Below are positions 19,748 to 51,064 of a DNA stretch of 52,923 nucleotides, one piece after another. Source of the DNA: Diplocarpon mali (Eukaryota > Ascomycota > Leotiomycetes > Helotiales > Drepanopezizaceae); assembly GCA_024741835.1 (NCBI GenBank), contig JAENRP010000308.1, positions 1 through 52,923 on the forward strand, given 5' to 3'. The first letter of the stretch is position 1; every line of letters starts with the position of its first letter. The notes beneath the pieces were generated by a model. The model saw nothing but the letters and a program-made list of their open reading frames with translations. It was not told where the DNA came from and searched no databases. The position numbers were made by a program, and so were the translations under genes.

Positions 19748-19755
19748 TACCCCTT

Positions 19756-21182: not shown

Positions 21183-24100
21183 CTAAACAATTATTTGAAA
21201 GCTTTAGAGGTTTAATAAATAAATAAAGCTTTTAAACTTCTAGCGGTTTGGGTTCTTAATAAGCCTATTTGCGTATATCTTTTTAGTAAAAAGGTAGATT
21301 ATTTAAAAGCTTCCTCTTTAGTACTCTTAGCGGATCTATATATTATTAATTTTAATATATTAAAGGCTTATCTTAATCTTCTTATTTTCTATAATAATTA
21401 GCCGAATTATCTATTAATTATTATAATATATATTCTATTTAAAGAAGGAGTCTATGCGAATCTCCTTAAAGAGGCGTTTTATAGCTATTATCTCCTTTAT
21501 AGTAAAAACTATACTATAGAGTTCTACTTTAATAAAGGAAAGCGTGATAGTCGCTTAGCGATTTACTTTCTAAATAATCGGTCCTTTAAATAGGAAGAAG
21601 ATATATTCTTAAAAGGATCTACGGGTTTTTTAATCATCTTTAAAAGAAGCATTTAAAGATGTAACTAATTAGTATTCCTAAGCCTTAAAGCTATAGGCAA
21701 TTCTTAAGAAGCGCATACTATATAAGTATTAAAGCGTCTAATCCGCAGCTAAGAGGTGCTTAAAGCTTAGATTAGTTAAGAAGAAAGATAATTAAAAGGC
21801 TGCGAACGCAATATTTAAGTATATTATAATCGCTATATAAAGAATAGAGCCTATTTTCTCTTAGTACTCCTTTACCTTTTCTAAGAAAGCTTACCCTAAG
21901 TTCTTAATAAACTCCTTCTTTAGTAGTAGAGTATTAAGTACTCTTCTTATATTAGTTTTAAACTTTTAAGCGATCTTCTTAATATAAGTATTATAAATTA
22001 AGGAGATCCTCTTTGCCTTCCTATCTTAAATAATCCTTATTTTAAGGAACTAAGAGATATCTCTTATAATAATAAGCTTATATGCCCTCTTTAGGTCTTC
22101 AATTAGACGAATCGCCTAATTTAGGTTAAAGGCCTAATATAATACTTGAATATTGTTAATATAAAACGCTATAAAGACTATGCGATCCTTTATTATAAAA
22201 ATACAAGGCTCTTTACCTAGTAGCTTAAGTTAAAGGCCTTTAAGCGTTCCTACGAAGTTCTTATACTATAGTATTAAAGAGTCTTTTAGCTTATAGAGCG
22301 CGCAGTCCAGTTCTACTATTATACTAAGGCGCTTAAAGCCATTTAGTAAGAGGTATATAACTAGAGCACTCCTTAGGTCTTTAAGAGCGTTAATAAACAT
22401 ATTAATAATATCGAACTGCTTTACTTCTATATTAAAGTATATAGTAAGTACTATTAGTACTTTAAAAGACCTTACTATAAGCGTGGTTGCATAGGTTAAG
22501 AAAATTAAAGCTTTATCTTAAAGATCCCTTTGTATAATTAGCTATAATTAGCACTTTAAAAGCTCGCTAAGGCTATTAACCTTATAGGTAAAAACCTATT
22601 TTAATAGTATTAGCAGGGGTTTTAAGTAGTCCTTTTATATAATTCTTTAGTAACTCTAAGATTCTAGATTCCTAATCTCTTAATGCCCTCTTTTTTTAAA
22701 TCGTTTACTAAAAGGGTGCTTCTTTAGGTCTAGCCATCCTTTTAAAGGCTTTAGCAGAAAGCCTTAGTACTATAGGCGGTTAAAAGACTGCGCTCTATCC
22801 TTTACCTAACTATTAACTATAGCTTTAATAATTATATAAACTATCAAATAGTCCTTCCTATCCTCCCTTATCTATTTGTTTACTTAAAAGGTTGATATAA
22901 ACTCCTATATATATAAAGAGTAAAGTAAATTAATATTACTTTAAGAGAGTATATACTTTAAAGTAATAGTATATACTTTTAAAGTCTCCTATTGCTTAAC
23001 ACTTAAGCGTCTTATCCTCTTTTACCTAAGAAGAGGGAGTTCCTTTTTGCGCTTTTCTCTATAGGTCTTCTCCTCTATTTTTATTATTACTAAAGGTTCC
23101 TCTAAGAGTCTAAGTAGCTCTATCTCTTAAGCCTATAGTTTCTAAGCTAGTATTACAACTTAAGGTATTATATTATTAAGGCCTACTCCTTTTACTAAGT
23201 CGCTTCTTATAAGACTATTAAAGCTCCTTCCAGATCTTAGTAGTAGTGCCTCTAGCCTTCTATTAGAGTTTATTAAAGCTTGCCTTTATAATTAAAGACT
23301 TTATCTTAAAGCCCTTAAGCCATTTCTATTCTTATATAGAATAGTAGCTAAAGATCTGCCGATCGCCTTATAAAACTTATCTTTAAAGACTCCCTTAGAG
23401 TTATCTATAGTTCCTTCTTTAATAAGGCCTTTATAGGGAATTATTACTCTTAAGCTCTAGTCGCTATTTGCCTTCTTAAAGACTAGCGAAGTGGCTTCTA
23501 ATTTGCTTACTTCTACCCTTGAGTTTCTAAGTAGGTCTTTTAAAGAATTTGGATTTAAGTTAAAGCCTTTTATATTATTAATTAAAGGCTATAAAGTAGC
23601 ATTAGTCTATAATGCAGGCTCTTCTTATATAGCGGCTTCTTCTGCAGCGATTACATTTAGCCTTATAATAAGCTTTAATTCCTTAAAAATGCCTTTGAAC
23701 TTAGCGTCTTAAGCTCCCTCTCCCTCTTTAATTAATTAGAAGGTTATCTTAAGTTCCTAGCGCAATATAGGGTTTACGCACTTAGCTTTTGGACTATAGA
23801 AGAGAGACTTATCGAATTCGATATTATAAGTCATTATTACTTACTAGAGTATAGGAACCTAGATTCTATAAATATTAGAGGTAATATATCTAATTAAGTA
23901 ACTTAAGTACCTTTGTAGTTCAATTTTAAAGGTTCGGCAGTCCCTTCCTACCTCCCTCTCTTTAATTAAAAGGTATACGTAAGCGCTATATATATAAATG
24001 CGATTTTAGTCTAGCTTTAAGCTTACTATTATCTACTTAATAAGTAGCGGCTTATAGAATCGAAAATACTACTTAAACCAACTGTAAAGAGCCTTACTTA

Positions 24101-30236: not shown

Positions 30237-33200
30237 ATTATTTCTCGCGCTACCTCTAAGAACTGATCTCTAAGGCCCTTCTTTAGGATCTCCTAGGATC
30301 TCTTTAACTTTTTAAATAACTTATATAACAATTGCTTATAGGTTCTTTTAATTAAGGACGAGTATAGTGGTATACTTTAGATATTCCTATTAAGATCGAA
30401 GGGCGGAGATATAGTTATAGAGGTCCTCTAGGCCTTTAAAGTACAAGTGAAACGCTAATATAGGCTTTCTATTTGCAAAATTAGGCAAGATAATAACACT
30501 TTAGTAATCTTCTTAAGGGAAGACTCTCTTATAAAGTACTAAAGATAGGTAAAAGAGGAGGGAATCGATTTAGAGCTTACTCCTGCCTATATATACCAAC
30601 CTAATAAAGGTGCAGAGCAAGTAGAAAGGGAGTTAATTAAACGCTTTATTAAAATAAGGATCTATACTAGGCTTTTAGCAAGCCTTTGGCCAGAGGTTAT
30701 AAAGGCTGCTATATACCTTTATAATATCTCCTTACTTACTAGGAAGAAGATGATCTTATTAAGCGAGGCTCTCTATAGTTAGTTCAAGTAGTATTTTCGA
30801 TTCTATAAGCTACTGCTTATTAAGCAGATAACGGCAAGCTTAAAGCCTAACTAGAGTTACGTTTATATATATAGCGCTTACGCATACCCTTTAATTAAAG
30901 AGAGGGAGGTAAGGAGGGATTGTTAAACTTTTAAAATTGAATTATAAAGGCACCTAGGTTACTTAGTTAAATATATTACCTTTAATATTTATAGAATCTA
31001 AGTTCTTATACTTTAGTAAGTAATAACGATTTATAATATTAAATTCGATAAGTCTCTCTTCTATAGTCCAAAAGCTAAGCGCGCAAACCCTATATTATAT
31101 TAAGAACTTAAGATAACCTTCTAATTGATCGAAGAGAGAGAGGGAGCTTAGGATACTAAGTTCGAAGGCATTTTTAAAGAATCGGAGCTTATTATAAGGC
31201 CGAACGCAATCGCTGCAAAAGAAGCTACTATATAGGAAAAGCCTATATTATAGACCGACGCTGCTCTATAACCTTTAACTAATAATATAAAAGGCCTTAA
31301 CTTAAATCTAAATTCTTTAAGAGACCCGCTTAGAAACTCAAGGGTAGAAGCAAGCGAACTAGAAGCCACTTTGCTAATCTTTAAGAAGGCAAATAGCGAC
31401 TAAAGCTTAAGGGTGATAATTCCCTATAAAGGCCCTATTAAAGAAGGAATTATAGATAACTTTAAAGGAGTCTTTAAAGACGAGTTCTATAAAGCGATCG
31501 GCAGATCTCTAGCTATTATTCTATATAAGAATAGAGATAGCTTAAGGGCTTTAAGATAGAGTCTTTAGTTATAAAGGCAAGCTTTAATAAACTTTAGTAG
31601 AAGGCTAGAGGCATTGCTATTAAGATCTGGGAAGAGCTTTAATAGTCTTATAAGAAGCGACCTAATAAAAGGAGTAGGCCTTAATAATATAATACCTTAA
31701 GTTATAATACTAGCTTAAAGACTTTAGACTTAGGAGATAGAGCTACTTAAACTCTTAAAGGAACCTTTAATAATAATAAAAATAAAGGAAAAGACCTATA
31801 AAGAAGAGCGTAAGAAGGAACTCCTTCTTCTTAAGTAAAAGAGGATAAGACGCTTAAGCATTAAGCAATAGGAGACTTTAAAAGTATATAATACTACTTT
31901 AAAGTATATACTCTTTTAAAGTAATATTAATTTACCTTACTTCTTATATATAAGAGTTTATATTAACCTTTTAAGCGAACGAATAAATAAAGGAGGATAA
32001 GAAGGACTATTTAATAGTTTATATAATTATTAAAGCTATAATTAATAGTTAAGCAAAAGATAGAACGCAGTCTCTTAACTGCCTATAGTACTAAGGCTCT
32101 TTGCTAAAGCCTCCGAAAGGATAGCTAGACTTAAAGAAGTACCCTTTTAACAAACGATTTAAGAAAGGAGGGCGCTAGGAGATTAGGAATCTAGAATCTC
32201 AGAGTTGCTAGAGAATTATACAAAGGGACTACTTAAAGCCCTTACTAATACTATTAAAATAGGTTTTTACCTATAAGATTAATAGCTCTAGCGAGCTTCT
32301 AAAGTGCCGATCACAGCTAGTTATACAAGGGGATCTTTAAAATAAAGCTTTAATTTTCTCAACCTACGCAGCTACGCTTGCAGCAAGGTCTTTTAAGGTA
32401 CTAATAGCACTTACTATATACTTCGATATAGAAGTAAAGCAGTTCGACGTTATTAATGCATTTGTTAACGCTTTTAAAGACCTAAGGAGTGCTTTAATCA
32501 TATGCTTCTTACTAAATGGCTTTAAGCGCCTTAGTATAATAGTAGAACTGGACTGCGTGCTTTATAAGCTGAAAGACTCTCTAGTGCTATAGTATAGGAA
32601 CTTCGCAGGAACGCTCAAGGGCCTTTAACTTAAGCCATTAGGCGAGGAGCCTTGTATTTTTATAATAAAGGATTATATAGTCTTTATAGCGTTTTATATT
32701 AACGATATTTAAGTATTATATAAGGCCTTTAACTTAAATCAAGCGACTTATTTGATTGAAGACTTAAAGAGGGCGTATAAGCTTACTATTATAAGAGATA
32801 TCTCTTAGTTCCTTAAAGTAAGGATTATTTAGGATAAGAAGGTAAAGAGGATCTCCTTAGTTTATAATACCTATATTAAGAAGATCGCTTAAAAGTTCGG
32901 AGCTAATATAGGGAAAGTGCTTAATACTCTACTACTAAAGAAGGAGTTTATTAAGAACTTAAGGCAAGCTTCTTTAAAAAAGGTAAAGGAGTACTAAGAG
33001 AAAATAGGCTCTATTCTTTATATAGCGATTATAATACGCCTAGATATTGCGTTTGCAGCCTTCTAACTGTCTTTCTTCTTAACTAATCTAAGCTTTAAGC
33101 ACCTCTTAGCTACGGATTAGATGCTTTAATACTTATATAGCACGCGCTTCTTAGGAATTGCCTATAGCTTTAAGACTAAGGAATACTAATTAGTTATATC

Positions 33201-33485
33201 TTTAGATACTTCTTTTAAAGATAATTAAAAGACTTATAGATCCTTTTAAAGATATATCTTCTTTTTATTTAAAGGACCGATTATTTAAAAAGCGAATTGC
33301 TAAGCGATTGTTATACTCTCTTCTACTAAAGTAGAACTCTATAGTATAGTTTCTACTGCAAAGGAGATAATAGCTATAAAATGCCTCTTTAAGGAGATTT
33401 GTATAGACTCCCTCTTTAAATGGAATATATATTGCAATAACTAATAGACGATTTAGCTAATTGTTATAAAGAATAAGAAGATTAA
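30237..33485 (+). pseudogene. C2 pol: integrase, RT and RNase H, degraded
   Basis: The plus-strand frame matches C1 pol. The integrase part includes DLELTPAYIYQPNKGAEQVE (about 30567-30630), the PxxxxQNGxAER-type segment, and RTRLLASLWPEV-like sequence after it. RT and RNase H follow, with FYINDI near 32690 (one Asp of YVDD kept) and TKVELYSIVSTAKEIIA near 33325. The frame is cut by D in the last part of RNase H at 33485. Stops are at Gln/Trp positions as in the other elements. Gag and protease have been lost at the 30237 junction. Confidence 0.82.
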
Positions 33486-33730
33486 TATAAAACAGAGGGG
33501 AGACAACACAAGAATAGGCCTAAGGGAAGACCCAAAAACAAGAGGAGGCAGCACCACAAGCGGGCTCTCTTAAATAAGATATTAGGAATAAGTCCTAAGT
33601 ATAGGGTATATTCAGTACTATAGCGACGCGCGCTATCTCTATATACAGAAGATGGCCCTTTTATCCTCCTATTGTCCTACGCCGATCATATAATATATAT
33701 TATAAGACCTATCTATCTTAGGTCTTTATA
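33486..33730 (-). repeat. D 3' LTR
   Basis: This is a 245-bp LTR, pair of 48997-49241, related to the E LTRs. It contains GCGCGCTATCTCTATATA near its middle. Confidence 0.9.
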
Positions 33731-34060
33731 TATATCTTAAATAATAAAAGTAGTAGCCCTTACTACTATTAGTAAAGAATATAAAATAATACAAGTTAAG
33801 GTAATAGCATATCAATTATTAGCAAACCTTAAGTGTAAGAAAACTAATATATTAAAAGGCCTAAATTAAGGCTATATTATCATTAAAGGTAAAAAAAAAG
33901 AAGAGAGTTTTTTTTTTTTNNNNNNNNNNNNNNNNNNNNNNNNNNNTTTTATACGCTTTTTACCTATAGGCTAGGCCTAGGAGTTAGAAAACGAAACTAT
34001 TAAAATAAATAAGCAGATTATAAAATTGTAAAAATAATCAAAATAGAACTAACCTAGGTA
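33731..34060 (-). other. D 3' region with T-run, assembly gap and motif
   Basis: This contains the segment shared with E (33750-33800), a T run that leads into 27 undetermined bases (33920-33946), and a palindromic motif copy (33963-33986). No reading frame is apparent. Confidence 0.6.
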
Positions 34061-37000
34061 TTAGTTTCCCTTAGTTCTCTTTAGAGGATAGGGAGAACTA
34101 TTACTAGATAATACTCTCTTTGCCAAATGACTACTTCTTCTTATAGTATTGCTATTAGTATCTAATAAGATAGGTCTTAGTATAGTAAGGGCCTTAGTGC
34201 TTCTTACTAATGCTAGCGTAGTCTAATGACTTTGGCCAATAGGAAGGGAAACTTATATTATAGCATTATTATTATCTTTATCTTTATTATCATTACTATC
34301 CTTTAGAGAGTCATCTGCTACTAAGGGGGACGCAGTAGGCGATTCTATAGCTATAACCTCCTTAGCCTTGCCTTTCTCTAGATCGAGTCGCGGGCTGGGC
34401 CTAGGAGTTATATTAAGGGTTTTTATATAAGGCTTTTTAATACTATACTTCTTAAGAAGAATTGTTTTATCAATTATATTATTAGCCTTAATATTATTAT
34501 TAGTGCCTTTTATCTTAGCTTAGGATTTGTACTTATATAGTTATAGCTTTAAGTATTAAATCAGTTTCTAAGTATAGGTAAAATCATTAAAAAGTTCTTA
34601 CTTATACTTCTTTAGATAGGTTATTAGCTGACCTATATCTTTAGATAGTAACTCCTTTACTATTATTACTATTAATAAATCGTTCTATAGTCGTCTCTTT
34701 ATAAGTGCTTCTAATAGTAGGCCACCTTTTATTATACTAAGTGTTATACGAAACTTGGCTAACAATTCCCTAGCAATACTCTATCTTATAGTGCTCGGTT
34801 TCTTTATACAAATAGACTTAATATAAAACTCGTCTAAGTCGGTACCATTTTCAAATGAGTTATTACTAATAACTTCTGTATAGTTATTACTAATAATAAG
34901 AAACCTACCCTTTTTAAGTTCTCTATTAGATTCTAAGTTAATAAACGTTCCTTATCTTATAAATATAGAAAATAGGGTAGTCTTATTAAAGATATATTCC
35001 TTAAGTAGCGTCTTAGTCTTAGTATTTAATTCTTTCTACTATATTGCGTTTTATATTAGATTTAGTAAGACCTATTAAGCATTCTTTAAGCGATAGGAGG
35101 TAAGAGCTAATAATTCATAGGATTTTTCTTAAATAGCAAATTCTCTAATTGATTGTTTTACTATAGGTATTATATAGTAATCGATAGTCCTACTATTAGG
35201 GGAGCTAACCTGCGAGCCGGGCCTAGGAGTTAGCCTTACGAATCTCGTATTAGCGTTAATCTTAATAGAAACAACTCTTAAATAGTGGTTAATGCCTATA
35301 AATTATATAGCCTTAAGATATGCCATCAGCTTATATAAAGAATTATAGTAAATTAATAGAGTATTAAGATATAGCCTATAGTGTATTCTTAAAGTCTATT
35401 ATATTAAACTATAAGTTATATTATAAAGGAAGGTAGAAGGAAGGGAAGGCTTCTTATCTAAGATTTAGAAATAGTGCCTATATATTTCCATTTCCTCTTA
35501 TACTAATATTAAAAATGAATTCTTTCCTTAAGAACTATAATTATATATGCGAACTATGCTTAAGAATGCGCAATTAAATAATTTAAGCATATTTAAGAAA
35601 CCCTTAATGTAAAGCGATATTAAGGTATCCTTAGTTAGTATTATTTCATATTAAGCAAGGGTCCAAGCGATATTATAAAATAATTTCAAAGCCTGAAATG
35701 CTACTTTAAACTTAAAGAAACCTAGTAATATATCTTTTTTAATCTAATTGGCCATTCTATTACCAGTAGCCACTATTGCATAATTTCTAAAGTGTAATAA
35801 GAATAATCTTAGATTAAGAGTAGTATAAAATTTATAAAGGTTAGATGATACTTCTTTATTAGTAATGCCTATTAATACTAATCTATAGTATAGTATATAT
35901 TATCGTTTATAGAGGGCATAAAATTTCTTAAAATAGAAGTCTTTAAATATCCCTATTACGAATTTACTCAAGCGAGTCTTTATTTCTAGTATTACTATAA
36001 CTTTGAATTTATTACTATACTATAGTATTATCTTAATGTTAAAGGGGACTTAATAACATTCTATAGAGATTATTATTATAGTATCTTTAGGCTTCTCCTC
36101 AAGCATATAGTAGTCGCCCTTTAATTTCTTATAATTGATAAAGAACTATATAATATTATCTAAGGTAAATTCGTCTTATTACAGTTTTATAATCTATTTA
36201 ATAGCTCTTACTATTGCCTCTTATACTAATAAAATATCTCCCCGGTTTTCCTTCTTTAAACACTTTATTATAGACTTATAGAATTTCAAAACAAACTTTT
36301 GCAAATCTTTAGAAAAGGTCTATATAATATCAGATATATCCTTCTTAATATTATTAAAAATTTCTAATACATTAGTAATAGTGCTCTCTTCTTCATCTGA
36401 TAAATCTTCTTCTAAGTTTATATTATTATATATACTAACCTATAGGCTAGGCCTGCGACTCAATTTATTTGCTACTAGTGTTTGAGGTATTTGAGGCACT
36501 TCTAAGGATAGTAATTCAAACTTATCTAAGTCGGAAGATAAGTAGTTAAGCTAGTATTCTACTTAAGCTTTAGGTATTATAAGCACCTTATCCTTAAGGA
36601 TTTCTTTATTATATACTTCTTCTACTTATAGGCCAGGCTTATAAGTCAAGTCGGGCTTATTTATTGATTCGGCCACTAATAGTAGTAGCTTCGCAGCAGC
36701 AAGGATAATAAATTCCTATCTTTCCGTTTTATTATTAAAGTAGTTTATAGTATACTTAATAAGATAAATCATCTTTTCTTTTATAATAAGTAGACTATAT
36801 TATAATTATTATAAGCTAAGCGTATTTAAAACTATTTGATTAAGGAGTATAAAATTATTATATTAAGCAGGGCTGTCTTTTATAATCTAAATAATAGAGT
36901 GCATAATAGTGCTTGAGAATCTAATAAATCTTTTGCCTTAAATACTATTTCCTTATAACTTCTTTATGCCTTCTTAGATAGTGAAATAATTCAATACCTA

Positions 37001-37489
37001 TATGGCTTTAGCTACTGGTTAGTACATTTTAAAAATCTTACCGAGTCCCTATAGGGCGTTATTAGTAGTAATATTAGTTATAAAGTAGGTTTGGAAAAGT
37101 GTACTATAAGTGCTATTTATAAATTGCATTAATCTTTTTATATACTTATTTTTCTTATCTTAATTCTTTTAAAATAAATCAACTGAATTAGTATACCCTT
37201 AATACTCTTATAAAAACTTTTTATAATTAATTCCTTTGCCTTAGAGTTCCTTATTTAAGAAATCATTAAAACTTAAAAATCCTTCCTTAATAGTAGAAAT
37301 TCTATAGTTAAGCACCTTAATAGATGAATTTAAGAATACCTATTATTCGGTCTCACCTAATGTTCTATAAGTGCTTATTATATCTTTTAATGATCTTAGT
37401 GACTTGCTATCCTATAAGAACCCTCCCTCTAATATTAGTTTATTATTAGTAGTGCTTAAGGACTTGCTGCCTAAGGTAATAACCGATAT
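34061..37489 (-). pseudogene. D ORF3b: unknown protein, paralogue of ORF3a
   Basis: This minus-strand frame of exactly 1,143 codons runs from a former ATG (now ATA, 37489) to TAA at 34061-34063, with only substitution-type stops. It is homologous to ORF3a throughout. Examples are STYRTLGETE against STYIALGDIE, PVAKAIxVLNYFTI against PIAKAIxILNFFII, and IIQFFINYKK against IIQFFNNYRS. HYRLYL...LMAYLKAI pairs with YYRLYL...LIAYLKPL. An acidic stretch (EEDLSDEEES) lies near 36410. The C-terminal part has a helical, Gln/Lys-rich segment (YLKKYKxELFNDF), an acidic Asp/Asn run and a basic end (PLKRTKGN). Motif copies are in frame at about 36625, 36438, 35209 and 34385. I recognise no family and saw no signal peptide or membrane segment. 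Confidence 0.72.
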
Positions 37490-38081
37490 ATTCTTCTTAG
37501 GTGTGGCCTTTTTACTTATAGTTGGTAGTGCTATAATGTATTATTTAGCAAAGGAGAGTAGCTCTAAACGAAGAGATGATTATTTAAGAAAGATTAACGA
37601 TATAGTAGGCTTATATTTAAAAAGATTGATAATAGAAAGATAATAGTAGTGGTTCTAATATTATAGGTCTAGTAGGGTTGAAAAGAGAAGTAAAAAAAAG
37701 TAAAATTGTAGTATAGGAAGAGGCTTATTTATAGAGTTTAGAGTCGCACTAGTGTATAAAGGAAAAGTAGGTATAAAGAAGCTAGAAGTAGGAACAAAAG
37801 TAGGGTATAATATATATAAGGACCTATAATTGGTAAATGATAATTGTTAAAGGTAAGGTTGATATTTCAAAGGTAAGCGTTAGAAAGTTGCATATAAAGG
37901 GAATAATCAAAGAATAAATTATATAAAAAGTAAAGTAAATAAAAAAAATATATAGAATAGAATAATAGGTTAAGAATAAAGAGGTGCAAGTATATAGAAA
38001 GTAGATAATCTTAAAAAAATTCAACTATAATTTGCAATCTCTCCAAATGGTTTTTAAAGGGAAGGAGTAGATTATAATTCT
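37371..38081 (-). other. D spacer between ORF3a and ORF3b (38081-37490) and ORF3b N-terminus
   Basis: About 590 bases (37490-38081) separate the two extra frames. It is AT-rich and contains a hydrophobic open stretch (37824-38024, minus) without homology to the paralogue. I read it as intergenic or as a variable extension of ORF3a. The part below 37490 is the start of ORF3b. A plus-strand open stretch at 37371-37643 is antisense. Confidence 0.45.
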
Positions 38082-41000
38082 TTAGATTAAGTTGACTTAA
38101 TTATTAGTTCAATTATTACTTTAGAGTCTTCTTCTTTTACATTAGTTCTTATTTCTTAGCGATTTCTTAGCTTTAGGGACCTTTATCAAAGGATCTTCTA
38201 TTAGTATAACTAGATTTAATAATTAAGGTTTATTTAAACTATCTTATAGGCTTAAGCTAGCTAAGTCCAACCTTACTTATAGGCCAGGCTCGCAAGTCAG
38301 TCTTGGCGTTTCTAAGCTTAAGGGTAAAAATAGGGGATTAGTTTCCAAATTAGGGTCTGATACTATACTAGCGTCTCAGTTCGTCTCTTTTCCGAATTTT
38401 CTTATAATAATGCCTTTATTAATTAGTGCATCAGGCTCTTAGATAGCATTTACTTTATCGCATTATCCTTAAGACTTAAGTCTATAAAGAAGCGACTTAG
38501 TATTTATAATATTTGTTTAGGCCTTAATAAGGGCGTTAAAGAGCTTCTGATTATATTCTATAAGGTGGATTTTCAATTTGTCTTTATTAAAAAGAAATAA
38601 CTCCTATACTTCGATTATAACTAATGGATCCATTTAAGAGTATCGACTAATAATAGCTTTAAAGAGGCTGCTGCAGTTCTTAAGATAAAAAGCTACCTTA
38701 AAAGGTGCAGTAGTTCTACTTATATTAATCTATTAAGGTACTAAAGGTTATTTTAAAGTAGAAATTAAAAAGATAAGATTAGAGATTCGAGTCTTATTTT
38801 CTAAGGTATTCTTATTGCAAACGGTTGTATAGTTATTGCAAAAGGCTATAAAACCATTAGTCTTATAAGAATTGTCCGAAAGCATTTTAAAAAGGTATTC
38901 CTATTTTATTATTACTATAATTAGATTACTATTATTAGTAATAGGTCGCAAGATCTCCTTTCGCTTCAATTTTACAATTATTTAAGCTAGTTGAGATTTT
39001 AAACCAAGTGCTTAAGAAGTCTATCGACTTATCTTCTTTATAGATAAAGTAAGTTTCATATTCGATTAAGAGCTAACCTACCTATTAAGGCTTTTAGAAG
39101 CTGGCCCTTATCCGATCGGTAGGATCTAATAATCTAAGACTTGCTTTTTAATAAAATTGACTCATAGGCTAGGACCGCGAGTAAAAATCGGAATTTCTTT
39201 ATTAATAGTACTTGCATCTCTTTTTATCGAAACGACTTAATTATAAAGACTAAGGCCAATTAATTAAAGAGGTTTAAGGTAGGCTATAAGCTAATAGGTT
39301 CTTCTACTTCTTACTATTATAGCTAAGAGGTAGAGTCTATAGTATATTTAAAGGACTTATTAAGTAAGATTGAATATTATATTATAAAGAAAACAAAAAG
39401 GTATAGAGGTTACGCTATCTATAAGGCGGAAGTAATAAAGATATATCTTTGCTTCTTATCTTATAATAGAGAGGAATATACTTATAAAAGTACTATTATT
39501 AGTAGTAAAATTGTTAATTAAGAAGCGGCATCCGAAGGGTTTAAGTATTACAATTGACCCTTCTTCCTCTATTTCCTCTTACTATTTATTACTTAATAAT
39601 ATCGATAAGAAGGAATTGTTCTATTTAATCGGCTTTAACGCTTTTAAGGCTTTAGGATTAGCCTTGAATTTTATAGCACTTAAAGATGCCTCTATTATTA
39701 ATAGGTTAGATTTGCGTATCCTTAAAGAGATAAAGAATTGATTATTAAGGTAGATTAGAAAAAGATCGATATCTTCTATTATATAGAGAAGTTCGAGGTA
39801 TTTAATAGTTTTATTAATATTAAATCCTTTATAATTAAGATTATAGTAAATCGAAAGAGAGCGAATATAAAGGTCGTAAAGTCTTTTCCCTTTGATTCTT
39901 ACGCTAGGAAGATACTATCGAAAGCGAGTTTTTATTATAAAGGACACTTGAATATTATATCATTCTTTAAGCTTAAGGTTAAGAATGACCGATTAAGGTA
40001 TATTGCTATAATTACAAATGTCCTAATTAATAGATTCCTTTTCGCATTCTCTTTCTTATAAGACGAAATAGTCTTGCTTAGTATTTAAGAGACTAGGTTC
40101 TTAACTTCTATAATTATTAAAGAATTGAATAATATCTGCAAGGGCAAATTCATTTAAGGTAAGCTATTAAATCTATCTAATAGCTCTCTTAATTGTTTTT
40201 AAAGTAGTAGGAATAGGGTCTTCCCTTGTATTATTATTTTTAAAGCGGTTGTATATAGATATAAAAAAGTTAAGAACTAGCTCTTTTAAGTTATTAAAAA
40301 AGGAATCTAAATAGGCTTGCAATCCTTTAGTTTTAAATTACAAATTAGCTAAGGTGGCTATCGAATAATCTATCCTTTTTAAAGGTCGAGCTAAAATTGG
40401 TTGTTTAGCTAAAGAAGAGTCCTTTAAAGATTCCGAAAATTCTAATAAGATTACGCTAAGCGTTTGGGTAATTTGTTTAATAGCAGTTTTTAAAATCATT
40501 TTAGCAAAAGACAGGTTAGGTCTAGTTTTAAAATTCTCATTTCTAACTCTTAATCTAAGACCGTAAGTCAAATTATATAGTTTAATACTTATTATATCTT
40601 TAGGCTAAGAAGCGAATTTTAAGGTAGGCTTAATTATAAATAACCAATTCCCTTCTTTATTATTAAAGAAATCTTATTTAAACCCTATTATAAGAGTCTA
40701 GTTCTCTTTTAAAATAAGCAAACTATAAGCAGAAGCGTAAAGCCTTAGTATATTAATAGTAGTACTATTAGGTAAGGTAATATCTGCAGTCTAATTTGAT
40801 CTTTTTATAGTCCTATTAGCTACTATAAGTATTATATTAGATAGGCTTATAAATTTGCAACTGCGAATTCGATTGCCTTAGAATTTTACTACTCCTTTTT
40901 AAATAATAAAGAAATTGAGAATCTAAATAGCTTTAGCAATAGGAGTGTTTTCCTTAAGAATTTTTAATAATACTTATCTTCTATTATTAGAATTAATATT

Positions 41001-41393
41001 TATTAAAAAGCGCAAATAAAATAGGAGTCCTCTCTTATTAGTAGTTAAATTATCCAATTGTTAAATAGATTCTTCTCTTTTATCTCGGTCTATTCTAAAA
41101 GTGTCGGCCAAGGTTATATATTAATCTATATCAGCTAAGAATTCCTCTTTAAAGATTCCCTTTAATCTTAATTCTTCGGTTAAGAAGTTGTCAAATTGAA
41201 GAATTCCAAAGGCTACTTAGGTTAAAAGGTTATTAATAGCATTTGCATAAGCTAAAAGGAGTTTTTATTACTCTATATCTCCTAAGGCTATATAGGTCGA
41301 TTTAAAGCTCTCTAATAATACAATAGCTCTACTATCCTAAGAGAAGTTTATAACTAATAATTATTTATCCCCTATTATATTAGACAAAGCCAT
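38082..41393 (-). pseudogene. D ORF3a: unknown protein, paralogue of ORF3b
   Basis: This minus-strand frame starts at ATG 41393 (MALSNIIGDK). It stays in one frame to about 38082, about 1,104 codons, broken only by TAA/TAG/TGA at likely Gln/Arg/Trp sites. The native stop is uncertain within about 100 bases. Notable segments are ALGDIExxKLLLAYANAINN (N-terminal), PIAKAIxILNFFII, LNEFALADIIQFFNNYR near the middle, and KAKKSLRNKN...CKRRRL, a basic C-terminal patch that resembles a nuclear localisation signal. Motif copies lie in frame at 40546, 39167 and 38275 (TYGLRLRV, TRGPSLxV, TCEPGLxV). It occupies the place of env in some Gypsy elements, but I saw no signal peptide or membrane anchor. The function is unknown. 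Confidence 0.72.
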
Positions 41394-41783
41394 TTATAAG
41401 TTCTTTAAAAGTATATTACTTATAAAAGATAGGGAGTATAAATAAGAGAGTTTAATAAGGTATAAGAATTAAAAGGGTATATAAGCTGCAATAGGTTTAC
41501 TATATATATATTAAGGAAATTGGACTTTTTATTTATTATTTAAGGAAAGTAATAGGAATGCTATAATTAAAGGCTAATATTAAGAATATAAAATAAGTTA
41601 AAGCAAGTAAGAATTTAAAGTGATCTTAAAAGATCCATATCTTAAATAATAAAGGAGGCGACCTTACTAAAAATATAAAAATAAGGATTATAAGAAGGCA
41701 GGACAATTAATAGGCTAAGAAATCGCTTAGTATTCCTACTTACGTTCTTTAGATATTTTAAGAATAATAACTTAAGGTTATAA
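41394..41783 (-). other. D spacer between pol and ORF3a
   Basis: This is 390 bases of AT-rich sequence with no readable frame, between the pol stop (41784) and the ORF3a ATG. It is a candidate place for a separate promoter or splice acceptor for ORF3a, but no motif is convincing. Confidence 0.4.
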
Positions 41784-44700
41784 TTAGTTAGGTATTTTAA
41801 TATTCTTTACTTATAGGACTAGCTTATAGGTTAAGTTGGAAAAATCTTAGTCTTCGTCTAAGGATTTAAAATTACTTATATTACTATCAGTTCTTATAGA
41901 AGATTCGGAGGTTATATCAATTTCTGATTTATCTTTTAAAAGGAATAAGGTCTAGTCGTATTAATAAAAGCGCTTCAGTCGGTTGGCTACAAAGGTTCCT
42001 TTAATATCGACTCTATTAAGTTTCTAAAGAGAATAGTATCCCTTTTCTTTTTATTTAAATTTAACCTTAAATAGGCCAAGCTATTGATAGTTAAGTTTAA
42101 TATCTATTAATATATTAATACTTCTTATAATATTATAAACTAGGATAAGATTATCTTTTCAAATAGGGTGCGTTTTAAGTACTTTAAAAGCAGCCTATAC
42201 TTCCTTAGCTTTTTCCTAATATTATTTCTTTTGTAAAATGATTTCCTTTATATCTATATCTTAAAGCTTAAGTTATTAATATCTTATTATAAGCAAATCA
42301 GAATAGTTCTAAATTTGACTATAGTCGAATAATCTCTAAATAGGCTATTAGGATTTAAAAGGGAGCTATGCCTCTCTACTATAGATAAGGAAAAATAGTA
42401 TAACTCTAATCAGTTTATAAATTATCATTTAATAAGTAAAGAGTATTTTATAAAAGTATTTTATCTAATTCTTAAATCCTCTATAGGTAACTTTAGATAG
42501 CCTATTAAAAATATTATAATATCCTCGCTCTATTACTCTATTAGCTTTCGAGTTGTATACTAAGATTTAAACCCATTTAATACTATATTTTCATAAGAAA
42601 GCTTTAACTACTCCTTTATTTTCAAGGCCTTTATTAATAGTTAGTCTGCTAAAAAGTCTATAGCAATAGACTACATCTTCTTAAAGGAACTTTATAATAG
42701 ATTCAAAGTTAGTAAATCTTAAAGGTCGTCCTTTAAGCCATCTTAATAGGTCTTCCTTTATTAAAATAAAACATATAATCCTATTTTTAATTATTAATAC
42801 TTATATAATATTAAGATTGACTTTATAAAAAAGGCCTAATAGCTAGGTTAAAAATAAGGGATTCTCTTTATAATTAGGTTTTCATTTCTAATAAGAGATG
42901 CAACTTTTTATAAAGGCTTTGCAATCTTTAAAAGAACCCTTTTAAAAGAATTTCCTTAAGAGTCGGTAGTAGGTAGACTTAGCTCCTTAATAGCCAGTTT
43001 CCTTATAAATATCCTAGATAGCCTTAGCCTTTAGTTTTTCATTATCTAAGCAGAGTTATATAAGGAATAAGTTATTGCTTCTTTTAAATAATCGTCTTCC
43101 TTATATTAAATAAATTAAAGCTTTAGCTTTGAATTTCTAAAAATCCTTAAGAGCAACTATCTTTAACTATCTAAGTATAATTAAAAATTTCGCAATTTCT
43201 TTAAAGTTACTTAAGTAATTAGGTAATAAAATTCTCTTATCTAACTCGCAAGCTAGGATTAAAAGTCGAGTCCCTTTAAGGCAATATATTAATAAATAAT
43301 CAACTTTATTCTCTACCTACTTATTAATATCTATTTTATCTTCTTTAATTAAATCAAAGGGGTAAGGGCAAGTTCTTCTTAAAAGGCCATCTATAGTAGT
43401 ATTTTTCATTCTTAGAATATATTTGACTTTAAAGTCTATTAGTCTTATCTAAGCAATCTATTTCATTAGTAAGGCTTTAATTAGGTCGCTTATAGCTCTA
43501 TTTAGTTATTCTACTAGCACTTTAATATTAGTTTCAAAGATAAAGTAAGTGCTATAAAGGTCGCTTCTTATCTTTTTTATTACTTTTAAAGCTCCTTTGT
43601 ATTTTTATTTAATAGTATTATACTTTATCTCTATTAGATTCTAAAGACTACTTTTAAAGTAAGCTAAATATCTTTTTTATTAGCTATTAGCTTATTAAAA
43701 GATAGCACCCCATTTAATTAAGCTTGCGTTAATTATTAGTATAATTGGCCTAACGTTAGCTCTATAGTCTATTTTAATTAGATATAGCGCTTTAAGCAAC
43801 GCTTGCTTTAATTGTTTTATAGCCTTTATTTAAGGTTCCTCTTATTAAAACTCAGCCCCTTTCTAAAATAAGGCGTAAATAGGTGCTGCCTTTTTAATAA
43901 AATCTTTAATTCAAATGCGATAGTATACTATAATGCTAATAAACGCGCAGGCTTCTGCTATATTATTATACCTTTTCTATTTGTCGATTTTAAGTACTTT
44001 AGCCCTTTAAAGACTTCGGCTATTAGAATTAATAATAAAACTAATAATTTCTATTAATAGAAGATAGTATTATAACTTTAGACCAACTATTGCTCCTGCC
44101 CTTTCGAATTGTATAAGTACCTAGTTTAGGTTCTAAATATATTCTATTATAAATTATTATATGCTAAGGAGAACTTCTTTATAATTATAAAATGATCTTA
44201 ATTCTTTTACTCTTATATTATCTATATAAAGGAGCGTAATATTAAGTATACAATCTACTAGTATCTTATAGATTACTTAAATAAATTAAGCAATCGAATT
44301 TATAGCCTCTTAAGGTAATCTTATCATTTGAAGTAGCCTAAGAGGGATTTGAATTACTATTATATCTCTTGATTTAATATTAAGAATAAATTAGTTATAT
44401 CTAAAGAAGAAGTTAATAAAAGAGCTATAGGTTAATCCTACGAATTCATTTAAGAACTTATCTATATTCGGAGGAATATTAGCGTCTTTAATAGTTATTC
44501 GGTTTATCTCTACTACTACTATTATTAGTCTATAAGTTCTCTTCTCTTTTTTAGCAACTAAGAACTATTTATTCCTATAAGGGCTATTATAGAACTTAAG
44601 AACACTTTGCTTTAGCCTATCCTTTAATATTTCGATTACCTTTTCTTAAAGAGCTTTAAAGACCTTAAATGTTTTCTCTTACTAGGCTTCGTAGGGTATT

Positions 44701-45470
44701 ATCTTAATCTTAATATAAGGCGTAACCTCTTCTTAAATCTGGCCTAGTTCCGTTTAGTCAAAAGCTAAGGCGTCCTTTCGATTTATTAAGGTTTTATAAA
44801 GTAGTTTACGTTCTTACTCTATTAAGTCTTCTTTAATTTTTAGTATATTAAAACGTTCTTTTATTAACTAATATCCGATAGGTTTATTAGAGAATCTGCT
44901 TATAATAAACTTATTGAATTTGCTATTTAGCTTTAGAAGTCGAAGCTTCTTATCTTATTTAAACTAATTATTTAATCCTTTAAGCTTTAAGCTATTAGAG
45001 ATTCCCTAATCTATTAGTTGTACTTTATCAGCCTTACTTTTATATATAGTTCGAATATTAGCTAGTATTATACTTCTTTACTTCTTTCCTTCTTTATTAA
45101 ATCCTATAAAACGGTCCGAATTTTCCTTTTTAAAAACAAATAAAAGATTTTTTAAATCGTCAATTTAAAGTGCGTAAATAGAAATATTATTAGTAATTTT
45201 ATTATTTTTCACTTGCAGGTCTGACTTATAAGTGGTTTTTAAGTTTTTTAAAATGATTAGTGAATTATTAAAATTTATAAAACGAACTCTCTTCTCTACC
45301 TTATTTTTCTTTTTTCTTAATTATTAAACTAATAAAACGCCGATTGTACCATTTTTCAAAATTCCAGATTTGACTCTTAGTCTAAGATTGTAAGTTAAAT
45401 TACTATTATTCAAAATCGGCAAACTTACCTTTCTTTTACTATAACTTCTTGCTAAGTGCCTTCCCTTATT
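41784..45470 (-). pseudogene. D pol: Ty3/Gypsy RT, RNase H and integrase, degraded
   Basis: The minus-strand frame has first codon base equal to 2 modulo 3. RT begins with FYNSPYRNxxFLVAKKEKRTYRLI (about 44590), the fungal type with YRNPWFLVxKK. It continues with NIPPNIDKF, RLPxEAINSIAxF and LLYIDNIRVK, where the catalytic YLDD or YIDD now reads YIDN. RNase H follows with NASLIKWGAIF (usual DASxxGWGA), IKYNTIKxKYKGALKVIKKIRSDLY and ILRMKNTTIDGLLRR. Integrase includes GLENKGVVKAF, YNSKANRVIERGYY (final Glu kept, GTA at 42536) and a C-terminal GTFVANRLKRFY, which recalls the G-N-R-L-K-x-F box of Gypsy integrases. A motif-type TYKLVLxV stands just before the stop at 41784-41786. The start is set only by the frame change near 45470. 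Confidence 0.82.
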
Positions 45471-45479
45471 AGTATTAAG

Positions 45480-48400
45480 CCTAGCCCTTATACTAGCTAA
45501 TTGTTTCTTAAAACCTTATTCTAGAATTCGGCTATATCTCTTATAATAACCATTTGTCCTTTTAAGGATCGATTTATATTTTAAAGACTGGCTTTTATAA
45601 GACTATCTTTAAGATAATTAAATATTAGCTAAGATTCTAAAATAAAGGGCATTCTTAAAAGAATATTATTTAAAGAATTCTCTATTATTAGAAAGTTAAT
45701 ATAATTAATAATTCCTTTAACTCTAACCTTTACATTTTTCACCTATTTATTAAAATTGTATTTCGATCTAAAGATAATCGAATAAATAAGGAGTCGATCG
45801 CTAACAATTATCAATTGAGCTATTTCTACTACTTTTCTAATTATTATATTAACTTTTAAACTATAATTGATCAAAGCCTTTACTTTAACTAATTCTTTTA
45901 TTAAATAAATAACAATAGGGCTTTTTATTATAACTGCTAAACAATTTCAATTGATATTTTAAAATATTAAAGCTATTACTATAATATTATAATACCTTTA
46001 AGTTCTTTTATCTTTTGCAATTTAAAGATATTTAATTAAAGCTAAGTACTTTTTAAAGTTCTTTTATATTACAATTTCTATTTCCTTATTATCATTCAAA
46101 TCTTTAAAGGCAATTAGAATATACTTTCTTAGCACTTTATTAAAGTGTCTAATTAAATTAAATAGGTCTTTAAACGTAAGGTTAATTTGCTAAGCTATAA
46201 CATTCTTTATAGCTTTCTCTATTGCGGTTGAACTAGCGTATTTATTAACGAATTTCTCCTATTTTAATATCTATCTCTTTCGCTTAAAGTTAAGGGTCTG
46301 CGTAATAACTTCGACTTCTTAATCTTTAAGTTTAAAGCCATCTTTATCTATTATATCTCTGATCAATTCGTCTACTATATTAGCTTTATCCTTATCTACT
46401 ATAGTTCTAGATTATTAAGTATCTTTTAGTATTTGGACTCTATATTAAGATTCCTAAGTTATATATATTAATTTCTAGACTTTAGCTAGTTTTATTAGTA
46501 TTAAGGGAGTAGTAGATCTAAAAGGACGCTAAGTATTCTAAGGGTTTTTAGATATAAAAGTAGTATTAATATTAGTAGATATATTATTATTAACCTACTT
46601 TAAAATAGAAATACCTTTGACTTTAATAGTAGTTTAGTTCGAAGTTTAATTAATAAGCACTCCTTTAAGTAGATTGCTAGCTAGACTTATATATATATAA
46701 GTTAAGACCTTAGAGTCGATTTCGATAATACGCTTCTATTTAGCCAAATCCTTATCCTACTTTATACTATATATTATTATTCAAATAGTCTATAGCTATA
46801 AACGATTCTAGTGTTTTTTAATAAGGATAGCGTCTAGCCTAGGATCTCTAATATAAAGCATCCTATACTTATTAATATATATAACCCTAGTGTTAATAAA
46901 ACAAAGGAAAAGAGGGCAATCGTTATAATACTTATATAAAGCATAGTTAAGTTCTTTATTATTGCAAAAGTTATAAGTTAATCATCTTCTATTGCTATTT
47001 CCTTAATATCCTATAGTATTAATATTAGCAGAGTGCTAATTAGGATCAATTCCTCCTTCTTCAGCTAGCTATTGCGTTCTTATATTAGCTGGTTGTTTTA
47101 AATAATAAAAAGCAGGAGTCTGGTAATAGGAACTATTAAGTTAGCTTATAATAGCTAAGTTTTATCTATTATTAAATTAAGGAATATACTATTTTTCCTA
47201 TAAGAGATTATTAATTCTAGTTTCTAAGCTTTAGATTTAGAGTTCTGCAAATTAGGTCTTAAGTTCCTTAATTCTAAGGTTGGATCTTACTCCTAAGTCG
47301 GGCCTGCGAGTGAAAGGTATAACCACTAGGTTCTTCTTAGCCTCCTTTATAACTTCTAGAGCTTTTAAGTATTCTTGGACCAGGCTCTTAAGGTCTTTAG
47401 TATAAGAGGGAGTAAGGGCTTTTTCCTACTCTATAGTATTAATAGTTCTTTTATTAAGATCTGATTTTAAAGCAAAGGCCGAGAATTCCTTAAATAAGGC
47501 AAAGGTTATAAGGTCTTACTTATTAATCCTAAAATGCTTAATAATCTTATTTCAAAGGCTAATAGGTAATCTAAGTAAGAAAAGGCGGCCTCTTTCAATT
47601 TCGCTAAGTATTTTCTAGCTAATTAAAGTATTCGATATATAAGTAAAAGTCCGATAGTAGTTCTTAAGTTCCTTAAGAATATAAGTAATTAAAATAAATT
47701 CCTTTAAGAAAGCTAGGGTATCGCAAATCTGCTATCTATTAAATTCGCGGAATTTAGATTTAAGGGCCTTAATAAGGAGTTCTTATAAATTATAAGTTTT
47801 CCATTTAAAGAGGGACTTAATAATATCTTTACTTATATAATTATAGTAGTAAGGAAGTCGAGAAATCATATCCTCTTATATAATATTAAAATTATAATAA
47901 GTTTCCTTATATTACTTAAGGAAATCAGTAATATTAGCGCCTATAAAGTAAGGAGCGCTAGGGGAACTAGGGAGAGGAAAGTGACTAATAATAGCCTTAA
48001 ATGCAGCTATTATCGTTTTATATTAACCGTCTAAGTTAATAGAATCTATAGGAGGCAAAGGGGAAGCTTTAATATTATAAGATTGATTATTAAGAAGAGT
48101 ACTTCGAAATTCAAAAGGGCTTAAAGAACATTTAAAATCTAAGTCAATCTTAAAGTGATTAAGACGAGTTTAAAAAGATTCAAATAAAGGGTTAATAAAA
48201 AGTTTAAAATTATTATTATTATTAGTATTTTTAAGTATTGATATTAAAAAAGTAGGTAGTAGCCTTAAGTTATTTAAAGATATCTTTTTATCCTCTTACT
48301 TATAGGCCAGGCCTAAGAGTAGAATTCCGAATTCTGCTAAAAGTTTAATCCGAGTTTGCTAAAAGATTTTAAGTAAGTATTAAATAGCTAATAAGAGTAT

Positions 48401-48682
48401 CGCAACTAATTATAATAAGATAAGGTTTACTTAATTAAGGACCAATTTCTAAGATAAGGTTTATATTTAAGATTCTTCTTAGCCTTTAGGCTAATTCCTA
48501 TTAGTCCTTAGAATAAAGGGGTCTTTAAAGACGATTCTAAAGCAATTTTTAAAGTTCTATCTAGCTAAGGCGGCTGAATTATCAGATTCGGCTTTCTAAG
48601 GATTTTAAAGAGACACTTCTAGTTAGAGTTTGCGCTTGGTATTACTTAAGTACTCGAAACCACTACTATTAGAGATTGCCAT
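45480..48682 (-). pseudogene. D gag-protease, degraded
   Basis: The start is ATG 48682 (MAISNSSGFEYLSNTKRK), with the frame equal to 1 modulo 3. Capsid-like sequence reads YFIGANITDFLKxYKETYYNF and MISRLPYYYNYISKDIIKSLFKW (about 47960-47800), the usual pattern of fungal Gypsy gag. A motif copy reads TRRPDLGV at about 47312-47289. Downstream lies a Gln/Asn-rich part (YYLKQPANI..., 47110) and a degraded Cys/His region (NFCNNKELNYALYKYYNDCP) near 46960. Protease: VKALINYSLKVNI, with the former catalytic Asp as AAT at 45868, then LLRMPFILES near 45655, which corresponds to the GMxFL segment. The following RT is read in the minus-one frame relative to this. Confidence 0.72.
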
Positions 48683-48976
48683 TATAGGGTTTATTAAACT
48701 TTTCATACTAAAAAGCCGAAAATTCCAAGAATCTCAAAGTTAAGGAGAAAAATAAGGGTTTTTCGAAATGGAGTTAAAAAGGGAAATTCTAAAGTTATTA
48801 ATAATTGCTAAACGAAAATCGACAGTTCTAAGTAATTAAGCGATTAAAGATAAGGTTTTTAAAGTTAATTAAAATGCTATAAGTGCTTCAAAGATGTATT
48901 TTTCAAAAGGCCGGTCTCTTATCTGCGAACTAAGAGATCGATAAGGTCGTATAAGGATGGAAATCTTAAGAAATCG
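48683..48976 (-). other. D leader
   Basis: This is untranslated sequence between the primer-binding site and the gag ATG. Its outer part matches the E leader (CTCTTATNTNC...AAATCGGTCC region). It holds no tandem array of the kind found in E. Confidence 0.55.
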
Positions 48977-48996
48977 GTCCTTGCGTAGGTTACTAA
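48977..48996 (-). promoter_or_regulatory. D primer-binding site
   Basis: The minus strand reads TTAGTAACCTACGCAAGGAC next to the 5' LTR. With E (TTGGTGACTTACGCAGGGAC) as guide, the original had TGG just after one spacer base, complementary to a tRNA CCA end. Confidence 0.55.
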
Positions 48997-49241
48997 TATA
49001 AAACAGAAGGGAGACAATATAAGAATAGGCCTAAGGGAAGACCTAAAAACAAGAGGAGATAGCACTATAAGCGGGCTCTCCTAGATAAGATATTAGGAAT
49101 AAGTCCTAAGTATAAGGTATATTCAGTACTATAGCAACGCGCGCTATCTCTATATATAGAAGATGGCCCTTTTATCCTCCCATCATCCTGCGCCGATTAT
49201 ATGATATATATTACAAGACCTATCCATCTTAGGTCTCCATA
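48997..49241 (-). repeat. D 5' LTR
   Basis: This is a 245-bp LTR, pair of 33486-33730. ATTAA and C2 RNase H sequence follow immediately. Confidence 0.9.
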
Positions 49242-49444
49242 TTAAGATAAACCTTTAATATATCGAAATTAGTAATATATAGATCTGCTAAGAGTATTAG
49301 AAAGGAAGCTTTTAGATAATCTACCTCCTTACTAAGGAGATATACGTAAATAGGCTTATTAAGAACTTAGACTATTAGAAGTTTAAAAGCTTTATTCATT
49401 TATTAAACTTCTAAAGCTTTTAAATAATCGTTTAGCAACTTGCA
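49242..49444 (+). pseudogene. C2 pol, end of RNase H after D
   Basis: This resumes the frame broken at 33485 (IEISNIxIC...). It reads SFxIIYLLTKEIYVNRLIKNLD near 49320-49365, the PTxEMxADxLTK end of Copia RNase H, then KFKSFIHLLNF. It matches C1 21190-21400 in reverse. Confidence 0.8.
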
Positions 49445-50867: not shown

Positions 50868-51064
50868 TATTATATAGAATAGGCAGAGTCTCCACTTATT
50901 CTAGAGACCCTTTATATAACTTTGCTAAGTTATAGACTCTCCCTTTTCTTTCCGAAGTCTCCTTACTATATATATACTAGATAATAATACAATTAATCAT
51001 CTTCTCCTACTTCTGCGAGCCTCCTGAGCGACCCAATGAAGGCCCTCCAGCCGACCGCACCACA
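50868..51064 (+). repeat. C2 3' LTR
   Basis: This is 197 bp, TATTATATAG to CCGCACCACA, less mutated at its end than the C1 low LTR. It is followed by the interior of an A LTR. Confidence 0.9.

What the first reader, a model, noticed from the sequence alone, without database searches (positions are those of the whole stretch)
34061..41393. Gypsy-type element D carries two tandem paralogous ~1,100-codon ORFs of unknown function downstream of pol
Between the integrase stop (41784) and the 3' LTR (33730), D holds two long single-frame coding remnants on the same strand as pol. They share collinear similarity from end to end, for example PIAKAIxILNFF against PVAKAIxVLNYF and ADIIQFFNNY against DNIIQFFINY. 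No LTRs, inverted repeats or LINE tail mark them as separate insertions. Each frame survives RIP with substitutions only, and ORF3b divides exactly into 1,143 codons. This suggests a 15.76-kb retrotransposon that acquired an extra gene and duplicated it. The origin could be a host gene, an envelope-like gene or a diverged gag; I cannot place it. The presence of both an acidic region and a basic C-terminus hints at a nucleic-acid or chromatin role, but that is speculation.
Basis: partly seen in the sequence, partly recalled or inferred. Interest (0 to 1): 0.88.

Follow-up and report, generated by a model that had tools for sequence, protein, structure and literature searches.

The report
Fungal retrotransposon with duplicated extra gene
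A large, now mutated jumping element in a fungus-like genome carries, beyond its usual genes, two related copies of an extra protein gene of unknown kind; one copy stayed stable while the other was repeatedly reshuffled.

Summary
Element D (33486-49241, minus strand, 15.76 kb) is one Ty3/gypsy-type unit: two 245-bp LTRs, an exact 4-bp target duplication, and an unoccupied relative of its target in the window. Downstream of pol lie two paralogous genes, ORF3a (38127-41393) and ORF3b (34043-37498), 30% identical over 976 aa, E 5e-68. They belong to the family: the IN-ORF3a and ORF3a-ORF3b junctions are contiguous in 40 of 40 scored matches each, window included, and six further copies show the same layout between their own LTRs. 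Transversions, which RIP cannot make, concentrate at third codon positions in ORF3a (15:12:41) and ORF3b (56:38:157), not in the spacer between them (11:14:14). Both were therefore selected as proteins before RIP. ORF3b is a mosaic of divergent segments. Best reading: a pair of non-envelope accessory genes of the element, one conserved, one diversifying. Their biochemical role is inferred only.

The parts
33486..33730 (-). 3' LTR of element D (on the transcribed strand the LTR begins TA or TG, depending on the copy, and ends TA)
   Evidence: self-comparison; boundaries read from seven copies; LTR pair 0 transversions in 246 sites
48997..49241 (-). 5' LTR of element D
33482..33485 (.). target-site duplication TTAA, left copy
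49242..49245 (.). target-site duplication TTAA, right copy
21330..21420 (-). unoccupied relative of the target repeat; reads straight through the insertion point
45399..48700 (-). gag and protease region (approximate ends; frame of 48700)
   Evidence: position and translation; no Pfam match for the degraded reading; transversions by codon position 5:5:17 in 46700-48399
41784..45698 (-). reverse transcriptase, RNase H and integrase (pol)
   Evidence: Pfam Integrase_H2C2 4e-06 (over its cut-off), RT_RNaseH_2 1.7e-05 (under its cut-off); PDB 7q5b, Ty3-G Gag-Pol, E 2.6e-11 and 4ol8, RT/RNase H, E 6.8e-13
38127..41393 (-). ORF3a, about 1,090 codons, conserved paralog, 59 stops in the reading
37499..38126 (-). 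spacer between ORF3a and ORF3b, no codon-position bias
   Evidence: transversion columns 11:14:14, p 0.79
34043..37498 (-). ORF3b, 1,152 codons, fast-evolving mosaic paralog, 59 stops in the reading

Best explanation
Element D is a 15.76-kb Ty3/gypsy-type LTR retrotransposon whose lineage gained a sense-strand gene of about 1,100 codons downstream of pol and duplicated it in tandem. Both copies then served the element as accessory proteins while it multiplied. Shown: one insertion unit, conservation in all scored family members, paralogy, and protein-level purifying selection on both genes before RIP. Inferred: the proteins act inside the cell, not as an envelope, and are made separately from gag-pol from their own downstream RNAs. 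Inferred with less confidence: ORF3a does a constant job for the element in the nucleus, such as handling genomic RNA or the pre-integration complex (C-terminal KRRR tail). ORF3b, rearranged by recombination between divergent subfamilies, does a related job against a changing partner, for instance host silencing. RIP later put dozens of stops into every full-length copy that was scored.
For: Unit: exact 4-bp target duplications in 7 of 7 copies read at both ends, and an empty-site relative in the window. Family: junctions contiguous in 40 of 40 and 40 of 40 scored matches, window included. ORF3b runs full length in one frame in 39 of 40 scored matches (64-83% identity besides itself), ORF3a in 42 of 42 (72-82%). 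13 of the 40 ORF3b places, window included, pair with an ORF3a place at a spacing of 621-636 bp. Selection: third-position excess of transversions, p 1.3e-5 for ORF3a and 4.4e-22 for ORF3b, none in the spacer between them. Diversification: 0.073 transversion columns per site in ORF3b against 0.021 in ORF3a and 0.021 in integrase; block-wise mosaic with 0 to 9.3% transversions between the same pairs of copies. Non-envelope: no 19-residue window of column-minimum hydropathy above 1.6, and one of mean hydropathy at 1.61 in ORF3a only.
Against: No relative with a known function was found, so the function is a guess. Dozens of stops in every full-length copy scored mean that expression cannot be judged. 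Basic charge is not distinctive. The KRRR tail is in ORF3a only; ORF3b has scattered short basic motifs. The non-coding spacer is nearly as variable as ORF3b (0.062 against 0.073 transversion columns per site), so the variation may be exchange of a whole spacer-and-ORF3b segment, or relaxed constraint, not an arms race. The per-site figures rest on different numbers of sequences (15, 18, 18, 13), the copies were picked by similarity to an ORF3b piece, and the tests treat related copies as independent.
Confidence: 0.6

Rival explanations
1. ORF3a and ORF3b are envelope-like genes, as in errantiviruses or plant Athila and Sire elements, giving an extracellular phase.
For: Position downstream of pol on the sense strand; ORF3b variability resembles that of surface proteins.
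Against: No clear transmembrane-like or signal-like stretch in either profile, although RIP tends to raise hydrophobicity. Cysteine is rare (1.1% and 0.4%), though RIP also removes cysteine codons. Two tandem 1,100-aa copies is not an envelope layout known to me (recalled).
Confidence: 0.1
2. ORF3a and ORF3b are diverged duplicates of gag or another structural (capsid-like) protein, perhaps taken from a mycovirus, and build part of the particle.
For: Large size, no catalytic motif consistent in both paralogs, paralog pair. One of 14 ORF3b copies gave a non-significant Gag_p24_C match, E 0.07.
Against: Profile comparison with the element's own gag gives probability 0.4% and 0.3%. No PDB profile match up to E 10, a library that holds mycovirus capsids (recalled). 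Both tests are weakened by RIP.
Confidence: 0.15
3. The ORFs are cargo: a captured host gene duplicated inside the element and carried passively, or a separate mobile gene pair that inserted into D.
For: No known function; two tandem copies could arise by unequal recombination. About 35-50 bp just after pol (41637-41683) resemble the sequence directly before the 3' LTR (33732-33781): blastn 80% over 50 bp, E 5e-6, score reached by 10 of 300 resamples. This may be a relic of an earlier 3' end, i.e. of how ORF3 was added, or chance in AT-rich DNA.
Against: Purifying selection on both genes among copies of the family. Junctions are the same in every scored copy, and the pair is kept in divergent copies. 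No terminal repeats mark the ORF3 block.
Confidence: 0.15

Closest known systems
Boty-like elements (BcGypsy1) of Botrytis cinerea with the extra gene brtn
   Same: Fungal gypsy element with an additional ORF besides gag and pol (PMC8365987, passages read; citation of Zhao et al. 2011 seen in the reference list of PMC7264820).
   Different: brtn is described as antisense in the title of Zhao et al. 2011 (title seen only). ORF3a and ORF3b are sense-strand, a tandem paralog pair, each about 1,100 codons.
Plant LTR retrotransposons with sense additional ORFs (aORF-3S)
   Same: Additional sense-strand ORFs besides gag and pol, some env-like (PMC7264820, passages read); capture downstream of pol is noted in PMC6431247 (passages).
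   Different: Some of those encode transmembrane, envelope-like proteins; none was detected here, and the host here is a RIP-active, fungus-like eukaryote.
Bdelloid rotifer LTR retrotransposons with diverse ORF3 types
   Same: Non-envelope ORF3 genes acquired in addition to gag and pol in LTR elements (PMC5408684, abstract and passages).
   Different: Those ORF3s encode GDSL esterases, DEDDy exonucleases, env or small membrane proteins; no such Pfam match was found here. The terms 'duplicat' and 'tandem' do not occur in that paper's main text.
Cer1 of C. elegans with CERV
   Same: LTR retrotransposon encoding a nuclear accessory protein besides gag and pol; the model for the nuclear role suggested here (PMC10309623, abstract and outline).
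   Different: No sequence comparison was made; CERV is a single protein made from a spliced mRNA.

Membership tests
Ty3/gypsy (Metaviridae) LTR retrotransposon | LTR pair with target-site duplication | tested here: met
   4-bp duplication in 7 of 7 copies read at both ends
Ty3/gypsy (Metaviridae) LTR retrotransposon | pol related to Ty3 with order RT, RNase H, integrase | tested here: met
   Ty3-G polyprotein 7q5b, residues 351-776 of the reading; RNase H 623-729, under its cut-off; integrase zinc domain 886-941, over its cut-off
Ty3/gypsy (Metaviridae) LTR retrotransposon | recognisable gag | tested here: inconclusive
   no Pfam match for the RIP-degraded reading; position and frame consistent
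envelope-bearing LTR element (errantivirus-like) | ORF3 with signal peptide and transmembrane segments | tested here: not met
   hydropathy only; no dedicated predictor was available
sense additional ORF (aORF-3S) kind | sense ORF between pol and 3' LTR conserved across copies | tested here: met
brtn-bearing Boty-like elements | extra gene antisense to gag-pol | tested here: not met
   ORF3a and ORF3b lie on the pol strand
brtn-bearing Boty-like elements | sequence homology to brtn | not tested
   no brtn sequence available in these tools
rotifer ORF3 types (GDSL, DEDDy, env) | domain match | tested here: inconclusive
   no Pfam match to those families, but RIP reduces power: gag of D also matched nothing

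The most novel reading that the evidence does not exclude
ORF3a and ORF3b are a previously undescribed protein family that turned a fungal gypsy element into a two-tier parasite: one conserved accessory protein, and one paralog that subfamilies swap and diversify segment by segment, as a counter-defence or host-interaction surface would be. In this respect it would work like a retroviral accessory or env gene, but inside the fungal cell.
Probability: 0.2. Interest if true: 0.75.

Novelty: new variant of a known kind. Interest (0 to 1): 0.5.

Why it matters
Extra genes in LTR elements are known from plants and animals. In the searches made here the only fungal precedent for a whole extra gene that turned up is the antisense brtn. 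A duplicated sense gene pair, kept under selection in a high-copy element and with one member evolving as a mosaic, would be a handle on how fungal retroelements cope with their hosts, in a genome where RIP records the outcome. The method also generalises: transversions by codon position recover past protein selection in RIP-destroyed genes.

Tried and rejected
Separate insertion of the ORF3 block: rejected. Relation to gag: rejected at this sensitivity. Known domains: Pfam on the window readings, 11 ORF3a copies and 14 ORF3b copies gave nothing significant; two families at E 0.07 and 0.18 in one ORF3b copy each. PDB profiles for ORF3a, ORF3b and both together gave no match up to E 10. As a yardstick, the equally degraded pol still matched Ty3 RT and integrase while gag matched nothing in Pfam, so absence is only moderate evidence. 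Viral contigs (two scans) and prokaryote genome contigs (one scan) gave no relative. AlphaFold2 on the two window readings gave pLDDT 26; it was not interpreted and no fold search was made. Similarity of the spacers upstream of the two genes: chance level (108 of 300 resamples reach it). Unusual basicity: rejected as distinctive. Motifs: no CCHC, C2H2 or YxDD in any row; Walker A in 1 of 14 ORF3b rows and no ORF3a row; a DExx string in 5 of 14 ORF3b rows; a loose D-35-E spacing in 11 of 11 ORF3a and 10 of 14 ORF3b rows, expected by chance in proteins of this length (my judgement, not tested) and not taken as catalytic. The host species was not identified; tubulin exons only show a eukaryote, and 'fungus' rests on the RIP signature.

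Full report
Anatomy. Element D occupies 33486-49241 on the minus strand, 15,756 bp. Its LTRs (245 bp each by the boundaries below) differ by 23 transitions, no transversion and no gap over the 246 sites compared, so the insertion was young when RIP struck. RIP indices over D are TpA/ApT 1.41 and (CpA+TpG)/(ApC+GpT) 0.54. Both flanks match a relative of the target repeat elsewhere in the window that reads straight through the insertion point. Taking the LTR as ending CTCYAYA on the plus strand, the duplication is 4 bp and exact in the window and in six further copies whose two ends were read (7 of 7, my reading of the ends printed). D is therefore one insertion unit.

Gene order on the transcribed strand. 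The 5' LTR is followed by a gag and protease frame (about 48700-45400), then RT, RNase H and integrase (about 45698-41784), ORF3a (41393-38127), ORF3b (37498-34043) and the 3' LTR. The degraded pol reading still matches the Ty3-G polyprotein (PDB 7q5b, E 2.6e-11) and an RT/RNase H chain (4ol8, E 6.8e-13), and Pfam Integrase_H2C2 over its cut-off (4e-06); two RNase H families match below their cut-offs. The gag reading matches nothing in Pfam, which calibrates how little an absent match means in this genome.

Paralogy. ORF3a and ORF3b are alike along nearly their whole length: BLASTP 30% over 976 aa, E 5e-68; profile against profile 31% over 1023 columns, E 1.6e-79.

Family. DNA pieces of ORF3b, RT and ORF3a each gave 40 scored matches, of 238, 274 and 246 first-look candidates. 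Queries across the IN-ORF3a junction and the ORF3a-ORF3b junction were contiguous in 40 of 40 scored matches each, window included, of 272 and 253 candidates; unscored candidates were not seen. Of 20 stretches fetched around ORF3b matches, 14 run from ORF3b into integrase without a large break, and a 3' LTR was matched in 9 of these 14. Six do not: L016, L020, L023, L024, L025 and L026 are broken, chimeric or cut short. As protein queries, ORF3b ran 1-1152 in one frame in 39 of 40 matches (64-83% identity besides itself; 32-60 stops) and ORF3a ran to its end in one frame in 42 of 42 (72-82%; 31-60 stops) (40 of 620 and 42 of 610 candidates scored). Thirteen of the 40 ORF3b places, window included, have an ORF3a partner at a spacing of 621-636 bp. 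No scored copy is free of stops.

Selection. RIP makes only transitions (established knowledge), so transversions date from other, mostly earlier, change. Transversion columns at codon positions 1:2:3, with the number of sequences including the window, are: ORF3a 15:12:41 (15, p 1.3e-5); ORF3b 56:38:157 (18, p 4.4e-22); its part 34043-36530 39:21:100 (20, p 1.1e-14); spacer between them 11:14:14 (18, p 0.79); spacer after integrase 3:1:5 (14, p 0.26); integrase part 9:3:13 (13, p 0.048); RT part 5:4:11 (7, p 0.12); gag 5:5:17 (7, p 0.0048), all. Rows are the window plus fetched copies covering at least 95% of the stretch. The copies share ancestry, so the p values are too sharp, but the contrast with the spacer stands. 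Pairwise, window against the most divergent ORF3b read (L040) gives 34:27:102. Both genes evolved as proteins.

Mosaic ORF3b. In 100-codon blocks, transversion divergence from the window copy jumps between 0 and 9.3%, and different copies share different divergent blocks (seven copies plus L040). L022 and L027 diverge mainly in codons 1-400. L018 and L028 diverge mainly beyond codon 600. L021 and L024 diverge in 201-400 and beyond 600 but not in 401-600. In the last block six of eight compared copies differ by 7.7% and L040 by 0. Across D, 500-bp windows of pol and ORF3a stay at or below 1.8% in the six copies compared, while ORF3b reaches 6.7%, the spacer 3.0%, and one gag-protease window (46232-46731) 3.0% in one copy. 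Per site, ORF3b has 0.073 transversion columns, the spacer 0.062, ORF3a 0.021 and integrase 0.021, on differing numbers of sequences. Exchange between subfamilies, for which template switching is the natural route (inference), is the simplest account. Whether the diversity itself was selected is not shown, and the variable spacer speaks for exchange of a longer segment.

What the proteins are. No Pfam, PDB-profile or viral-contig relative was found. The large protein database was switched off, so novelty of the family is not established. Hydropathy shows no clear transmembrane stretch: column-minimum windows peak at 0.82 and 0.83, mean windows at 1.61 and 1.58. Walker A occurs in no ORF3a row and 1 of 14 ORF3b rows; no CCHC or C2H2 finger and no YxDD occurs in any row. 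ORF3a ends in KRRR in 10 of 11 rows; the eleventh is truncated. Net charge is not distinctive. The structure model failed (pLDDT 26).

A possible trace of origin. About 35-50 bp just after pol (41637-41683) resemble the sequence directly before the 3' LTR (33732-33781): blastn 80% over 50 bp, E 5e-6. A local alignment score as high was reached by 10 of 300 composition-matched resamples, so this is suggestive only. If real, the element's old 3' end lay next to pol and ORF3 was added beyond it.

Interpretation. Established: a selected, duplicated, sense-strand extra gene pair belonging to the element. Inferred: accessory proteins acting inside the cell. Guess: a nuclear role such as that of CERV in Cer1 (PMC10309623, abstract and outline read), with ORF3b as the version facing a changing host partner.

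Literature. Additional ORFs in LTR elements are known in plants and rotifers (PMC7264820 and PMC5408684, passages read), and capture downstream of pol is noted in a review of giant elements (PMC6431247, passages). In fungi, the additional ORF brtn of Boty-like elements was found (PMC8365987, passages), antisense by the title of its source paper (title only). The survey of fungal LTR elements (PMC3248453, passages) mentions complex elements with added domains produced by multiple insertions into one locus; its figures were not seen. The listings showed no fungal element with a duplicated sense ORF3; most listed papers were not opened, and the library lacks most subscription journals.

Noticed in passing
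window 36438, 36624, 38275, 39160, 45211, 47289, 48298 and nine further places: A 23-bp palindromic repeat (about ACTCGCAGGCCNGGCCTGCGAGT, blurred by RIP) occurs 16 times in the window with up to 3 mismatches to a loosened pattern, against 0 in each of 100 shuffles, and 722 times in the genome against 0 for the reversed control. One literature search for such in-frame palindromes in fungi found nothing.
   Followed up: partly
window 34386, 35208, 36438, 36624 (ORF3b); 38275, 39160, 39697 (ORF3a): With a RIP-tolerant pattern D holds 15 matches against 0-4 in ten shuffles; all seven inside ORF3a and ORF3b sit in the same codon phase, giving peptides like TRRPGLRV, and are present in nearly all covering copies. 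Sites 35208 and 39160 align with each other in the two paralogs. This recalls the in-frame palindromic elements of Rickettsia (recalled); no sequence link was tested.
   Followed up: partly
window 41637-41683 and 33732-33781: Sequence just after pol resembles the stretch directly before the 3' LTR; a possible relic of an older 3' end, statistically weak.
   Followed up: partly
window 21330-21420: Uninterrupted relative of D's target repeat, so the window holds both filled and empty site.
   Followed up: yes
window 19553-24622 against 49241-51062 and 30238-33490: D interrupts another long repeat whose other copy lies inverted in the same window; much of the window matches other parts of itself as nested, RIP-degraded repeats.
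   Followed up: no
L016, L020, L023, L024, L025, L026: Copies of D that are broken, rearranged or cut short within or near the ORF3 genes.
   Followed up: no
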